64,000 nucleotides of DNA from Methanobrevibacter millerae (GTDB lineage Archaea > Methanobacteriota > Methanobacteria > Methanobacteriales > Methanobacteriaceae): contig NZ_CP011266.1 of NCBI RefSeq assembly GCF_001477655.1, positions 1,038,001 through 1,102,000 of the forward strand. Reading direction: 5' to 3'. A model generated the notes under the pieces. It had not been told where the DNA came from. It ran no database searches and was given only the letters and a program-made list of their open reading frames with translations. The first letter of the stretch is position 1. Each line of letters opens with the position of its first letter. The position numbers and the translations under genes were made by a program. Shown one piece after another: positions 13,313-28,168 of this stretch.

Positions 13313-13466
13313 TGTAATCCCTAGTTTTTTTATTATATTTTATTTATTTTTTTAATAGTTAATAAATTAATTGAGAGAGCATTTGACAAGTAATAAATAT
13401 TCACAATAATTTTAAATATTACATTCAAACAATATAATATCTATATAACTAATTTTATTGATTATT

Positions 13467-23252: not shown

Positions 23253-23978
23253 ATGTTAACTTTTATTAAGATAGAATTTTTAAAACTTAAAAGATCTAAA
23301 ATATTCTTATTGAGTTTAATTGGAGCAGTACTTCCTCCATTGTTAATGTTTATCGCGGTAACATCTTTTGATGAAGGACATAGTTTTGAAATGCTATTTG
23401 CAAATGTAAATATGTATATGTCAGCAATGTTTGCTGTTTTAATTTTTGCAATAATCATATCTTACCTATTTGGTAGGGAATATAACGAGCATACTCTAAA
23501 AACAATTTTAACAATTCCTGTGTCCAGGGGAAAATTTTTGTTAAGTAAATATGCTATGTTTTTTGTATGGATTGTTATTTTATCAATATTTACTAGTTTT
23601 TCAACACTTATATTTGGTTTTGCTGCAGGTCTTGAAGGATTTAGCATAGGAATGTTTATGGATAGTTTTTTACAACTTCTCTATTCAAATGTATTGTTGT
23701 TTTTGACATTTTCTCCATTTGTATTCATTTCTTTGTTAATAACAAACATGGTTCCTGCGATGATTGGTGGTGCTGGATTAGCTTTAGTTAATTTGATGGT
23801 ATATGGTCAGAACTGGGCTCCGTTCGTGCCTTGGGTGTGTCCATATTTAATAGCATCCGGTGAAATAGCTGAGTATAGTACAAGCATTACTTTATCTTAT
23901 GGTATTATTTTAGCCACATTTTTCATTGGATTATCTATTTCATATATGTACTTCACAAAAACTGATGTCGCACTTTAA
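23253..23978 (+). CDS. ABC-2 type permease subunit
   Basis: About 241 aa. ATG 23253 is preferred over the TTG one codon earlier, because AAGGAGGAATTTG places the ribosome binding site well. The N-terminus (IEFLKLKRSKIFLLSL) is the typical amphipathic start of BcrB/ABC-2 permeases. About six membrane segments follow. It forms the membrane half of the exporter with the preceding ATPase. Its stop lies just before a strong hairpin at 23985 that resembles a transposon tail and could also end this transcript. Confidence 0.88.
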   Translation: MLTFIKIEFLKLKRSKIFLLSLIGAVLPPLLMFIAVTSFDEGHSFEMLFANVNMYMSAMFAVLIFAIIISYLFGREYNEHTLKTILTIPVSRGKFLLSKYAMFFVWIVILSIFTSFSTLIFGFAAGLEGFSIGMFMDSFLQLLYSNVLLFLTFSPFVFISLLITNMVPAMIGGAGLALVNLMVYGQNWAPFVPWVCPYLIASGEIAEYSTSITLSYGIILATFFIGLSISYMYFTKTDVAL

Positions 23979-23984
23979 CTTTAT

Positions 23985-24030
23985 TGTGCAAGAATTCTCC
24001 GGCTTCTTTAAGCCGGGGATGAATTGCACA
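23985..24030 (+). repeat. Orphan hairpin resembling the right end of a tnpB (IS200/IS605-type) element
   Basis: A 46-base imperfect palindrome has outer arms TGTGCAA/TTGCACA and an inner stem CCGGCTT-CTTT-AAGCCGG. The inner part (AAGAATTCTCCGGCTTCTTTAAGC) closely resembles the tail just after the tnpB stop at 27834-27859, read in the same direction. No tnpB precedes it here; the ABC permease does. It may be what is left of an excised or decayed element, or a relative reused as terminator for the ABC operon. Confidence 0.5.
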
Positions 24031-24118
24031 TTTTAGTGGATAGTGTCTATATTTTTTTTATGTGGATGGAGTGATGCGTTAGATAGGATTGGACGATTGC
24101 TCGTCCGCACCCTCTTAA

Positions 24119-24152
24119 GAACCGTACGTGTCCGTTTCCAAACATACGGCTC
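24119..24152 (-). ncRNA. Group II intron domain V (catalytic hairpin)
   Basis: On the minus strand this is exactly 34 bases. It begins GAGCCGTATG and ends ACGTACGGTTC, the canonical domain V pairing with the AGC catalytic triad in the lower stem and a GGAAAC-type tip. Domain VI follows at once as the stem GGACGA-GCAA-TCGTCC (24106-24091) with unpaired adenines near its 3' side for the branch point. Confidence 0.85.
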
Positions 24153-24188
24153 AAGCAGAACTTTATCCGAAAGTTCAGTCATGATATT

Positions 24189-25682
24189 TCATCGATTCAT
24201 GAAGTAGTTCTCTTTACTTTTGTCATATGGTGAATTATTGTGTGTTATCATTTTATGTCGCTTAATCTTAGTCCAACTCATTTTAATTAAATGATTCTCT
24301 TGTTTAGGACCAGTTAGTACCCATTTTCCACGATGATATCCATCATCGTATTCTGGGAAATATTTTCTTTTAATCCATTTCCAACCTTTATTTTGGTGCA
24401 AACGGCGCAAAAACTTATATATTTTGTTCCATATATAGTAATCCATATCAGAAAATATCTTTTTAGCAACAGTAGGTTTCCAATAATTGGCAGTGCCAAT
24501 TATTAAAGGGTTTAAAGAGTCTATCAGACTGTCCACGTTGTCTCCGTGATGCCATCTGACTCTTTCAGACACTTTAGCTTTAAAATTTTTGATACTATCT
24601 TTTGATGGTTTAATCAAACATTTTAAACCTTTATTAGTTTTATATTGTCTGAAATTGAATCCTAGAAAATCAAATCCTTCAGAAATGTGTGTAATTTTAG
24701 TTTTATCTTCTGCAAGTACCAATCCTCTCTCGGAAAGGTAGTTTTCAAGAATTTTAGGTACTTTTTCGATGTCTTCTTTAGTTCTTGCGAAAATAACGAA
24801 ATCATCGGCATATCGAGTAACACGATATTTTCCTTTAGTTTCATAAAATTCTTTGGTTTCACCATTTCGTATTTGAGTTCTCTTCTTGTAAGAGATGTTT
24901 AAATAGTCTTCAAGTCCAGTTAAAGCAATATTTGCCAGTAAAGGTGAAAGTAATCCTCCTTGAGGAGTACCACTCGTGGTCCTATTAAACACACCATTAT
25001 CAACGTATCCTGCTTTTAAGTACCTTTCTACCAGTTTAATCAATGGAAAACCTCTAATTTTACTTAAAATAAACTCGTGAGATAAATTATTGAAGCAATC
25101 TTTAAAATCACCTTCAAATACTTCACAAAATTTATTGTTGTGGATAATGTTAAATATTCGTTCTACGGCGTCATGGACTCCTCTTTTCGGCCTAAACCCA
25201 TAACTGATGGGTTCAAAATTGACCTCCATTTGAGGTTCCAATGCCATGCGAATAATTTCTTGATAAACCCTATCAATAACAGTAGGAATTCCCAAAGGGC
25301 GTAATTTACCATTTTTCTTACGAATATAATGTCTATACGCAGGTTTAGGAACATGTTTAGATATATTCCTAGTTTTGAGTTTATCAACTAATTCTCCACG
25401 TTGTTTATCAGTTTTGATGACTTTTCCATCGATTCCAGGTGTTCTTTTACCTTTATTAATTTGTGTAACACGTTTAACTGCCATTAAAATGGCAGATGTA
25501 CTTCTCACCAATATTCTTTGTAAATCTCGTACTTTTCTTGAATCTCCTATGCTTTCGGCATGATATATCCGTTTCTGTAACTTATCTATATACTTCTCGA
25601 CCTTGTACCAATTGATACAAGACCAATCCGTAGCGTATTGTGCTGTGGACTCATAAACATCATTGTTTTGAGCGTATCTCAT
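24189..25682 (-). CDS. ltrA: Group II intron reverse transcriptase/maturase
   Basis: 497 aa intron-encoded protein. The RT domain starts near residue 75 with KGKRTPGIDG. It contains RPLGIPTVIDRVYQ, YGFRPKRG, the palm TPQGGLLSPLLANI and the active site YADDF near residue 290. The maturase/X domain covers roughly residues 350-450 (SLNPLIIGTANYWK...). There is no C-terminal HNH endonuclease motif, so it is probably an endonuclease-minus type that primes at replication forks or nicks. The protein helps fold and mobilise its own intron. The catalytic residues are intact and the frame is unbroken. Bacterial-type introns of this kind are widespread in gut methanogens by transfer. Confidence 0.95.
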   Translation of the reverse strand: MRYAQNNDVYESTAQYATDWSCINWYKVEKYIDKLQKRIYHAESIGDSRKVRDLQRILVRSTSAILMAVKRVTQINKGKRTPGIDGKVIKTDKQRGELVDKLKTRNISKHVPKPAYRHYIRKKNGKLRPLGIPTVIDRVYQEIIRMALEPQMEVNFEPISYGFRPKRGVHDAVERIFNIIHNNKFCEVFEGDFKDCFNNLSHEFILSKIRGFPLIKLVERYLKAGYVDNGVFNRTTSGTPQGGLLSPLLANIALTGLEDYLNISYKKRTQIRNGETKEFYETKGKYRVTRYADDFVIFARTKEDIEKVPKILENYLSERGLVLAEDKTKITHISEGFDFLGFNFRQYKTNKGLKCLIKPSKDSIKNFKAKVSERVRWHHGDNVDSLIDSLNPLIIGTANYWKPTVAKKIFSDMDYYIWNKIYKFLRRLHQNKGWKWIKRKYFPEYDDGYHRGKWVLTGPKQENHLIKMSWTKIKRHKMITHNNSPYDKSKENYFMNR

Positions 25683-26322
25683 CTTATCACTAATCCTTTG
25701 AATAAATTACTTATTTTCCGTTTTATATTCACGTTTTCCACCAATCAGAAGTCTGCCATGTTATCCATGCCACACACGAAGGTGTGGTATCCATTATAGT
25801 TATTATTCCCACTATTTCCTATTGTCTTTCGACTGTTAATGGCTTTTGCTTTCTCTGATATCCATTACCTCCCAAGGAATTAGGCTTCATTTACAATCCG
25901 CTTACTCACAGATAGTTGTGAGATCTTGTGAGGCTTACCAAGTTGATCTACTTCAGAAGCGAATGAATTAAGGTTCAATCTATACTCCGGCAAATTACTG
26001 TAAGGTTATGACTAAATAATCACGTAATCATTGATTATTTCTATGAATTTGCTATTCAATAGTAGTTAAATTAAGTTTAACGTTGCATTCTACCTATTGG
26101 CTTGATTTACGAAGCTTACAATTGTTCACTTACGTTAACCTTTTTCACTCTTTCCCTAGCACATAAGTACAATGAATGCTTTATACTTATTTATGCATAA
26201 TATCATGCAACCTCATAATCAATTACTCGATTATGAGTTTCAATGGGGAAAATCCCGTCATAACTGGGATTGAAATAAGATTTCACTGATTTAAATGGGA
26301 AATAGACCCTAGCTTGTCGCAC
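25683..26322 (-). ncRNA. Group II intron ribozyme 5' part (domains I-III)
   Basis: About 640 bases without an open frame between the maturase start and the 5' splice site. It begins GTGCG and contains the candidate EBS1 GATTAC at 26029-26024. Several short inverted repeats are visible, for example ACGTAATCATTGATTAT near 26022-26038. The detailed fold was not computed. Confidence 0.7.
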
Positions 26323-26576
26323 GATTACTTTTCAAATGCTTTCGGATAAATGCCATATAATATGTAGGTTTATAATATGTAATATAGAAAGATGGGGGAA
26401 AAACTTCAATAAGTTAATTTTTTTCCTTTTTTTTTTAAGCACGGTTTCATAATAATTTTTTAAAAAAAACAATCCTTTTAGTGATTATATTTTTTTTAGT
26501 CACTAGGATGATGTTTTTTTTTTAGGATTTTTTTTATAATTTTAATAAAATGTGGAAAAAAAGATGTTGAAAAAAA

Positions 26577-27833
26577 ATGTGCGATAAAACTTTTATTTTA
26601 ACGGATAAGGTTGAATTTGTTCCTGATGAAGAGATGGAAAAGGAATTATGGTTTAATATTAATGCCAGTGCTTTTGTGTACAATAAAACATTGGAATATA
26701 GTATTTACCGTGAAAATCTAGTTAAAGAATTCGCAATAGGCAACAAATTTAAAGTAAACCGCACATACACACAAAAAATAGTTAAAACATTAAAAAAACA
26801 TTATCCTTTTCTAGAAGATGCTGATTCTACCTGCCTTCAAGCATCCACTGATAGACTAATAAAAGCCTATGAAGGATATTATGACCACAGAACCGGCGCT
26901 CCAAGATTTAAAAAACGTAAAAAAAATCCTGTAACTTCTATTACTCTTCGAAACAATTTTTATGATACCAAAGAAGGTAATGTAGGGGCTATTAGGTGGT
27001 TGTCTGAAAATGAATTACGAGTGACTAAACTGGGAAAAATAACCGTTAAGCATAGAAGACACATCAAAGGTAAAATTAAAGAGGCTACATTAAAATATGA
27101 AAACGGACGCTGGTACGTATGTATAGTATACGAATTAGATGAAAATAGACATGGTGAATTTTCCTATGGAGGATTATATGTCGGAATAGATGTTGGAATA
27201 ACTGACTTTTTAACATTTTCCAACGGAAAAGTGATAGCCAAACCTGACCTGAAGAAAATAAACGGAAGAATACAGTATTACCAACAAAAACTCGACGGCA
27301 AAAAAGAAGGCGGATCCAACTGGAAAAAAACACTAAAAAAACTCCACAAATGGATAAGAAAGAAAAACAACGTAGTAAACGACTATTACCATAAAATATC
27401 CTATAATATAGTCAAACACTGCCAATTCATAGCCATGGAAACACTCAACATTCGAGGAATGATTAAAGGTAACTTAAGCCGAAGCATACATGAAATCGGA
27501 TGGGGAAAACTCATAGAAATGATAAAATACAAAGCAGAATTATATGGTCGTGAATTCGTACAAATCGATCGTTGGTTTCCATCGAGCAAAAAATGCCATG
27601 TTTGTGGAGAAATCAATCACGACTTAGGTCGTGAAGAAAGAGAATGGGAATGTCCCCATTGTCATGCAGTACATCAAAGAGATGTAAATGCTGCAAAAAA
27701 CATTTTAGACGAAGGTCTACGCGCCACTGGTTCAATGGTGCTATGCTTAGTAGATTTCATGCCTAATAGTCAAGGAAAATCCATATATTATTATGAATGG
27801 AAATGCTTTGACGAAAAAATAGGCATGGCCTAA
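26577..27833 (+). CDS. tnpB: RNA-guided endonuclease TnpB family protein
   Basis: 418 aa. The RuvC-like core has the first aspartate in YVGIDVGITDF near residue 205, the glutamate in FIAMETLNIRGM near 285, and the last aspartate in HQRDVNAAKNIL near 370. The zinc finger CHVC...CPHC lies between the last two. All catalytic positions are present, so the nuclease could be active. TnpB proteins are RNA-guided DNA nucleases, ancestors of Cas12, that keep their own element in place. The guide RNA normally overlaps the 3' end of the gene and the right end of the element, which here would be around 27700-27860. Confidence 0.93.
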   Translation: MCDKTFILTDKVEFVPDEEMEKELWFNINASAFVYNKTLEYSIYRENLVKEFAIGNKFKVNRTYTQKIVKTLKKHYPFLEDADSTCLQASTDRLIKAYEGYYDHRTGAPRFKKRKKNPVTSITLRNNFYDTKEGNVGAIRWLSENELRVTKLGKITVKHRRHIKGKIKEATLKYENGRWYVCIVYELDENRHGEFSYGGLYVGIDVGITDFLTFSNGKVIAKPDLKKINGRIQYYQQKLDGKKEGGSNWKKTLKKLHKWIRKKNNVVNDYYHKISYNIVKHCQFIAMETLNIRGMIKGNLSRSIHEIGWGKLIEMIKYKAELYGREFVQIDRWFPSSKKCHVCGEINHDLGREEREWECPHCHAVHQRDVNAAKNILDEGLRATGSMVLCLVDFMPNSQGKSIYYYEWKCFDEKIGMA

Positions 27834-27837
27834 GAAT

Positions 27838-27859
27838 CTTCGGCTTCTACAAGCCGGAG
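27838..27859 (+). ncRNA. Right-end hairpin, likely part of the TnpB guide (omega/re) RNA
   Basis: CTTCGGCTT pairs with AAGCCGGAG across the loop CTAC, with one G-T pair, starting five bases after the tnpB stop. In characterised elements the guide RNA runs through this region and its guide starts just past the element end, here possibly at or after AGGTTCAAATAG. The RNA itself is inferred by analogy. Confidence 0.5.
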
Positions 27860-27891
27860 AGGTTCAAATAGTATATTTATGATGTGATATT

Positions 27892-28168
27892 ATGAATGAT
27901 TTTGAGAATCAAAAGTTCTGTCAATCTTGTGCAATGCAATTAGCTGAGGATAAACTCTTTGGAACTAAATGAGGATGGTACAAAAAATGAAGAGTATTAT
28001 ATTTATTGCTTTAAAAATGGTGAATTTACATCAGACATGTCAATGGATGGAATGATGAATTTCTGCATTGGAAAAATGGTTGAGGTTCACCCTGAAATTG
28101 ATGTAAATGAAGCATCTTCAATGATGAAAGAAATATTTCCAAAATTGAAAAGATGGGCAAATGATTAA
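27892..28168 (+). pseudogene. Zinc-ribbon protein gene broken by a single-base frameshift
   Basis: The reading frame from ATG 27892 gives MNDFENQKFCQSCAMQL...KLFGTK and stops at 27970. The frame one base over, from 27959, continues with NEDGTKNEEYYIYCFKNGEF...MNFCIGKM to the stop at 28168. Deleting one A of the AAA at 27967-27969 restores GTNEDGTKNEEYYIYC, the standard sequence of the small putative zinc-ribbon family (FCQSCGMP...GTNxDGSKNxEYCxYC). Four cysteines (two CxxC-like pairs) would bind zinc. This is either a real mutation or a sequencing error in a short A-run. It lies directly beside the tnpB element. Confidence 0.8.

What the first reader, a model, noticed from the sequence alone, without database searches (positions are those of the whole stretch)
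23985..24030. Orphan tnpB-tail hairpin behind the ABC permease
The hairpin after the ABC operon and the tail of the tnpB element 3.8 kb away share AAGAAT-TCCGGCTTCT-AAGCCGG in the same orientation. The first has no tnpB in front. It could be a scar of an excised element, the second end of a larger composite that enclosed the group II intron, or a domesticated terminator. A guide-RNA-like piece without its nuclease could even be used in trans by the nearby TnpB.
Basis: partly seen in the sequence, partly recalled or inferred. Interest (0 to 1): 0.5.

Follow-up and report, generated by a model that had tools for sequence, protein, structure and literature searches.

The report
Transposon left end split by intron
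The 'orphan' hairpin is the left tip of the same tnpB jumping gene that lies 2.5 kb away; a group II intron has landed between them, beside a DNA motif that this methane-making archaeon also carries in front of its DNA-repair genes.

Summary
The hairpin is real (46 nt, 23985-24030) and resembles the tnpB tail, but it is not an orphan. A second copy of the element in the same genome (Methanobrevibacter millerae SM9, by exact genome length) runs hairpin, tnpB, tail with no intron; window 23973-24076 and 26323-27867 match it on either side of a 2,245-bp antisense group II intron. So the hairpin is the left end (LE) of the IS200/IS605-type element 23980-27867, inserted after TTTAAC at the ABC permease's stop codon. 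None of 29 relatives has the hairpin behind this permease.

Why the intron sits there is the better story. Close relatives of this intron occupy 15 sites in 9 genomes, all one nucleotide from a 19-bp box (ATTACTTTTCAAATGCTCT); 10 of 10 distant introns do not. The box occurs in 67 of 67 genus genomes, precedes 10 of 10 tnpB genes here and 26 of 27 in relatives, and precedes uvrA, hef, hel308, hjc, RPA, MCM and topoVI-B. It looks like a promoter element of a repair/replication regulon that tnpB has joined. TnpB-less elements with omega-RNA-like tails exist in relatives.

The parts
23974..23979 (+). TTTAAC insertion target, overlapping the stop codon (23976-23978) of the ABC permease; expected TAM of the TnpB
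   Evidence: Same six bases before the intron-less twin and before 10 of 10 left ends of the subfamily
23980..27867 (+). Whole tnpB element, intron included; without the intron about 1.64 kb
   Evidence: Borders where window and twin L023 diverge
23985..24030 (+). The flagged hairpin = left end (LE) hairpin of the element
   Evidence: Fold; position in the twin directly before tnpB
24078..26322 (-). Group II intron, 2,245 bp, antisense to tnpB
   Evidence: Absent from the twin; 100% identical copy at C1:1296120-1298364; starts GTGCGAC
24078..24154 (-). Catalytic 3' part (domains V/VI) of the intron
   Evidence: Rfam RF00029, 52.1 bits
24189..25682 (-). Intron-encoded reverse transcriptase/maturase, 497 aa, no endonuclease domain reported
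   Evidence: RVT_N, RVT_1, GIIM and TIGR04416 over its cut-off
26014..26029 (-). Candidate EBS1 (GATTAC / GATTATTT) that can pair with the 5' exon
   Evidence: Intron positions 294-309; pairing inferred
26324..26342 (+). 19-bp box (ATTACTTTTCAAATGCTTT), promoter element of tnpB and landing site of the intron
26577..27833 (+). tnpB, 418 aa RNA-guided nuclease, intact
   Evidence: NF040570 guided_TnpB over its cut-off; Pfam OrfB_IS605 and Cas12f1-like_TNB; PDB relatives incl. 8bf8
27832..27867 (+). Right end (RE): AAGAAT + hairpin + TTCAA, presumed 3' part of the omega RNA
   Evidence: 24 of 24 right ends in relatives stop at TTCAA with different flanks
27892..28168 (+). Zn_ribbon_2 gene, frameshifted; next to the permease in 19 of 29 relatives

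Best explanation
The hairpin is the left transposon end (LE) of the tnpB element at 23980-27867. An IS200/IS605-type element with tnpB but no tnpA sits after TTTAAC at the stop codon of the ABC permease. LE and RE look alike because both carry the GAAT + hairpin module that a Y1 transposase (TnpA) reads on single-stranded DNA (mechanism recalled from IS608/ISDra2, not tested here); the genome's only TnpA, in another element with similar ends, would supply it in trans. Later a group II intron retrohomed into this copy: its RNA pairs with the complement of the 19-bp promoter box of tnpB and enters one nucleotide upstream of the box, so that LE and tnpB were pushed 2.2 kb apart while box and tnpB stayed together. 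Shown: element borders, empty and filled intron site, the box beside every close intron copy. Inferred: mobilisation in trans, EBS1 pairing, retrohoming, and that the box works as a promoter element.
For: Intron-less twin of the element in the same genome with matching borders. TTTAAC before 10 of 10 left ends and TTCAA at 24 of 24 right ends of the subfamily in other contigs. LE pattern in 40 of 67 genus genomes, reversed control 0. 0 of 29 relatives have the hairpin behind the permease and 19 of 29 keep permease and Zn-ribbon gene side by side. One Y1 TnpA in the genome with similar LE and RE. 15 of 15 close intron copies start one nucleotide from the box, 10 of 10 distant introns do not.
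Against: The window locus lacks about 40 bp that relatives have between permease and Zn-ribbon gene, box included, which a clean IS605-type insertion does not explain. No tnpA in the element. Of 30 LE loci, 3 have neither tnpB, intron nor omega-RNA part behind them. No RNA or protein experiment.
Confidence: 0.94

Rival explanations
1. The hairpin is a scar left by an excised or recombined tnpB element, unrelated to the tnpB 2.5 kb away.
For: A 46-bp hairpin that looks like a fusion of an LE left half with an RE right half, behind TTTAAC and ending in GGTTCAA, exists at C1:2263206-2263251.
Against: The window hairpin has a full LE right half (GGGGATGAATTGCAC) and 46 further bases that continue into the twin element; the rest of the element follows behind the intron.
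Confidence: 0.02
2. The hairpin serves as a terminator of the ABC operon (domesticated).
For: It is a strong stem 6 bp behind the permease stop codon.
Against: 0 of 29 relatives have it; it is followed by ATTTTAGTGG, not by a clear U run; it is the conserved LE of a mobile element. A side effect as terminator is not excluded.
Confidence: 0.03
3. The hairpin is a guide-RNA-like piece used in trans by TnpB.
For: TnpB-less elements with the 3' end of tnpB and RE exist in 9 of 67 genus genomes.
Against: Those carry the RE side; this hairpin is an LE without tnpB 3' sequence or TTCAA end.
Confidence: 0.01
4. Intron and tnpB element travel as one composite, so the intron-split state was inherited by transposition rather than made here.
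For: Intron-split tnpB elements occur twice here and in G049; the intron at G035:C90 has a 5' flank like the window element and a 3' flank like the other split element.
Against: The two split elements here belong to different tnpB lineages (28% identity) and a third intron copy sits before an integrase gene, not a tnpB; independent insertions beside one motif are simpler.
Confidence: 0.08

Closest known systems
IS200/IS605 family, tnpB-only (IS1341-like) elements; ISDra2 TnpB for the nuclease
   Same: Subterminal hairpins at both ends, insertion after a fixed short motif, right end TTCAA, TnpB with RuvC and zinc-finger regions
   Different: This copy is cut in two by a group II intron; its tnpB promoter carries a box shared with repair genes
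Group II introns that target mobile elements, for instance RmInt1 in ISRm2011-2 (recalled), and endonuclease-less introns in general
   Same: Reverse transcriptase/maturase without endonuclease domain; site-specific insertion into an IS-borne sequence
   Different: The target is a dispersed promoter-type motif found in front of many host genes, and insertion leaves the motif intact
IStrons (group I intron + IS200/605 ends; PMC4227781, seen in a search listing only)
   Same: Intron and tnpB element in one piece of DNA
   Different: Here a group II intron, antisense, inside the element's left part; not a fused unit, since the twin lacks it
Orc1-2 / ANTTTC damage-response element of Sulfolobales (PMC9738581, passages read)
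   Same: An archaeal promoter motif shared by DNA-damage-response genes
   Different: Here a 19-bp box of another sequence in a euryarchaeal genus; regulator and inducibility unknown

Membership tests
IS200/IS605 (tnpB-only element) | Subterminal hairpins (not inverted repeats) at both ends | tested here: met
   LE 23985-24030 and RE 27832-27867 in the same orientation
IS200/IS605 (tnpB-only element) | Insertion 3' of a fixed short target without duplication | tested here: met
   TTTAAC before 10 of 10 left ends; right flanks all different; TTTAAC or TTTATC before 28 of 30 LEs
IS200/IS605 (tnpB-only element) | TnpB of the guided nuclease family | tested here: met
   NF040570 274.6 bits over a cut-off of 100; PDB 8bf8, E 2.4e-35
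IS200/IS605 (tnpB-only element) | Mobilisation by a Y1 TnpA acting on both ends | not testable with these tools
   One TnpA in the genome with similar ends; binding needs experiment
Group II intron | Domain V, GUGYG 5' end and RT/maturase | tested here: met
   RF00029, GTGCG start, TIGR04416 341 bits over 300
Group II intron | EBS-IBS pairing with the target | tested here: inconclusive
   Candidate EBS1 at intron 294-309; no clear EBS2 found
IStron | Intron fused with the IS ends and inserted as one unit, group I intron | tested here: not met
   Intron is group II, antisense and absent from the twin element
Intrinsic terminator | GC stem followed by a U run, conserved behind the operon | tested here: not met
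   Stem followed by ATTTTAGTGG; absent in 29 of 29 relatives
DNA-damage regulon (SOS-like) | Shared promoter motif before repair genes | tested here: met
   Box before uvrA, hef, RPA, MCM, topoVI-B, UvrD-type (own genome), hel308, hjc (relatives)
DNA-damage regulon (SOS-like) | Induction by DNA damage through a known regulator | not testable with these tools
   No expression data

The most novel reading that the evidence does not exclude
Methanobrevibacter has an SOS-like regulon defined by a 19-bp promoter box. TnpB nucleases, TnpB-less omega-RNA elements and proviral integrases have all plugged into it, so that RNA-guided cutting and mobility are switched on together with homologous repair. 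A lineage of group II introns uses that regulatory box as its homing site, entering beside it without breaking it.
Probability: 0.45. Interest if true: 0.85.

Novelty: new variant of a known kind. Interest (0 to 1): 0.55.

Why it matters
The flagged hairpin itself is ordinary once explained. What explains it is less so: a mobile intron whose target is a regulatory motif, and a motif that ties tnpB to DNA-repair genes. If the box is damage-inducible, it would show how a transposon nuclease that makes double-strand breaks is timed with the repair machinery that turns breaks into element copies, and it would give gut and rumen methanogens a testable damage regulon. The TnpB-less elements with omega-RNA-like tails are natural candidates for guides acting in trans.

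Tried and rejected
Ungapped pattern searches for the LE core missed the RE (one-base gap and one differing base). The idea that the hairpin belongs to the ABC operon was tested with 29 relatives and dropped. The scar idea was dropped, though a scar-like hairpin was found elsewhere. Of 30 LE loci (one per genome) 13 are followed by tnpB, 8 reach a contig end within 300 nt, 5 turned out to be omega-RNA-only elements, 1 is followed by an intron and 3 (L119, L121, L123) remain unexplained. Covariation in the solo RNA alignment is weak: 1 of 32 predicted pairs has a double change. Three of 14 solo elements gave no RE with my expression. G040 carries a solo element although the TnpB search gave no hit there, so some solos may be fossils. 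One of 27 tnpB loci (L155) lacks the box. About ten own-genome boxes precede genes with no repair role that I can name. The LE core has no exact match in viral contigs. Literature: searches listed no paper that I recognised (titles and abstract starts only) as describing this box, this intron target or TnpB-less omega-RNA elements in methanogens; one search listed 20 of 51 papers, 15 of 220, 15 of 142, 12 of 491, 12 of 105, 20 of 65. Most subscription papers are not in that library.

Full report
WHERE. The window is bases 1,038,001-1,102,000 of a single 2,543,538-bp contig. Methanobrevibacter millerae SM9 is reported with exactly 2,543,538 bp (PMC4987999, passages read), so the host is taken to be that rumen methanogen. 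Order on the + strand: ABC ATPase, ABC-2 permease (ends 23978), hairpin, antisense group II intron, tnpB, tnpB tail, Zn-ribbon pseudogene, tRNA.

OBSERVATION. The hairpin at 23985-24030 folds far better than shuffles (z -5.8) and resembles the tnpB tail (local score 19 against a best of 14.5 in 2,000 composition shuffles). The wording of the shared core is slightly off (TTCGG in the tail, plus a one-base gap).

IT IS THE LEFT END OF THE TNPB ELEMENT. A search of the own genome with 221 bp around the hairpin finds 104 bp at 98% identity at C1:683486, and the window TnpB has a near-identical twin at C1:683830. Aligning the two loci gives window 23973-24076 = L023 2487-2590 and window 26323-27867 = L023 2592-4121, both 98%. 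The twin has hairpin, 0.3 kb, tnpB and tail in a row, with no intron. Both copies begin after TTTAAC and end at GGTTCAA, where the flanks diverge. In other Methanobrevibacter contigs (fetched) 10 of 10 left ends that my expression found follow TTTAAC, and 24 of 24 right ends stop at TTCAA with 24 different flanks (47 loci were scanned, many cut at contig ends). A general left-end pattern occurs in 40 of 67 genus genomes, with no hit of the reversed control; of 30 such loci, one per genome, 28 are preceded by TTTAAC or TTTATC. This is standard IS200/IS605 anatomy. The genome has one Y1 transposase, in an element with a similar LE and RE, so this tnpB-only element would be moved in trans (inference).

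THE LOCUS BEFORE THE ELEMENT. The permease was found in 49 of 67 genus genomes. In the 29 relatives fetched, the hairpin is never behind it; in 19 of 29 the permease is followed about 75 bp later by a Zn_ribbon_2 gene. In the window this gene lies beyond the element, is frameshifted and has lost about 40 bp in front, including the box that relatives carry there (12 relatives were put into that script, 11 appear in the alignment besides the window). The loss of those bases is not explained by a clean insertion.

WHY THE INTRON IS THERE. The 5' exon of the intron (minus strand) is the complement of ATTACTTTTCAAATGCTTT at 26324-26342, one base from the intron start. Relatives of the intron were sought in 67 genomes (matches in 30) and junctions were read for those fetched. 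Fifteen distinct copies that are 84-100% alike over their first 35-130 nt, in 9 genomes, all start one nucleotide from this box (0-4 mismatches of 19); six of the fifteen are fragments of 35-87 nt at contig ends. Ten distant introns (72-78% alike) with enough 5' exon have no box (9 or more mismatches). Within 168,492 background positions 7 lie within 4 mismatches, true boxes included. The intron enters upstream of the box, so box, TATA region and gene stay in one piece. A candidate EBS1 (GATTAC, GATTATTT) lies at intron positions 294-309; no clear EBS2 was found. The two full intron copies are 100% identical while the two copies of the window element are 98% identical, so the element duplication is likely older than the intron.

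THE BOX. In the own genome it has 36 matches with up to 3 mismatches, against 2 for the reversed control. A degenerate form with up to 1 mismatch occurs in 67 of 67 genus genomes, with zero control hits. Of the 30 own-genome sites fetched, 29 lie in front of an ORF in the same orientation. The best TATA-like octamer lies 9 nt behind the box in 14 of 30, whereas hits in the upstream control window are scattered. Ten of the 30 precede tnpB, and these are all 10 tnpB genes found in the genome, though three and two of them are near-identical copies. In other genomes 26 of 27 tnpB loci with upstream DNA (29 fetched) have the box within 3 mismatches, the reversed control never below 5. Family searches name, behind other own-genome boxes, a UvrD-type helicase, topoisomerase VI B, anaerobic ribonucleotide reductase, replication factor A, Hef, MCM, UvrA and a DEAD_2 helicase, and behind boxes in relatives Hel308 and Hjc. 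About ten own-genome boxes precede genes of other or unknown kind (YdjM, RhuM, Bro-N, Panacea, integrase and unnamed ones). In 29 viral contigs with the exact box, 16 have it 47-77 bp in front of a tyrosine-integrase-like ORF, by my reading of the sequences and not by a family search. I read the box as a promoter element of a repair/replication regulon; damage induction is a guess.

TNPB-LESS ELEMENTS. Five LE loci led to elements of 291-297 bp made of LE, box, TATA and then directly the 3' end of a tnpB of another lineage plus RE. A pattern for them matches 13 times in 8 of 67 genomes, control zero; with L124 there are 14 in 9 genomes. Eleven of 14 are complete from box to RE, with 11 different right flanks and no open frame above 68 codons. 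The omega-RNA-like part is strongly conserved; pair covariation is weak.

VERDICT. Hairpin: left end of an intron-split tnpB element, 0.94. Box as homing site of this intron lineage: strong by counts. Box as damage-responsive promoter: open, about even odds.

Noticed in passing
L025 (C1:2263206-2263251, -): A 46-bp solo hairpin behind TTTAAC that fuses the left half of an LE with the right half of an RE and ends in GGTTCAA: probably a deletion scar between the two element ends.
   Followed up: partly
L032 1268-3570 (C1:2273767-2276069): A second kind of group II intron, sense to tnpB, sits inside another LE, right behind its stem-loop (as group IIC introns do behind terminators, recalled).
   Followed up: partly
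L026 1501-5890 (C1:281500-285889) and L028 4421-9982 (C1:1694420-1699981): Tandem or nested arrays of 66-70% related group II introns lying one behind the other.
   Followed up: no
L293-L321 (viral contigs); L073 and L090 in the own genome: The box lies just in front of tyrosine-integrase-like genes in 16 of 29 viral contigs that hold it exactly; promoter or attachment site is open. In the own genome boxes at C1:547170 and C1:575499 share a CTAGGAAAAAAC-like tail and could bound an integrated element.
   Followed up: partly
L100, L110, L111, L118, L124, L233-L245: TnpB-less elements (LE, box, TATA, omega-RNA-like part, RE) in 9 of 67 genus genomes, one of them (G040) without any TnpB hit.
   Followed up: partly
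window 27892-28168: Zn_ribbon_2 gene behind the element has a one-base frameshift and has lost its own box-bearing promoter; a sequencing error for the frameshift is not excluded.
   Followed up: partly
window 13376-13394 (-): Another box in the window, in front of a UvrD-type helicase gene.
   Followed up: partly
L225 (G049:C39) and L112 (G032:C275): Two further LE hairpins with an antisense group II intron right behind them, as in the window.
   Followed up: partly
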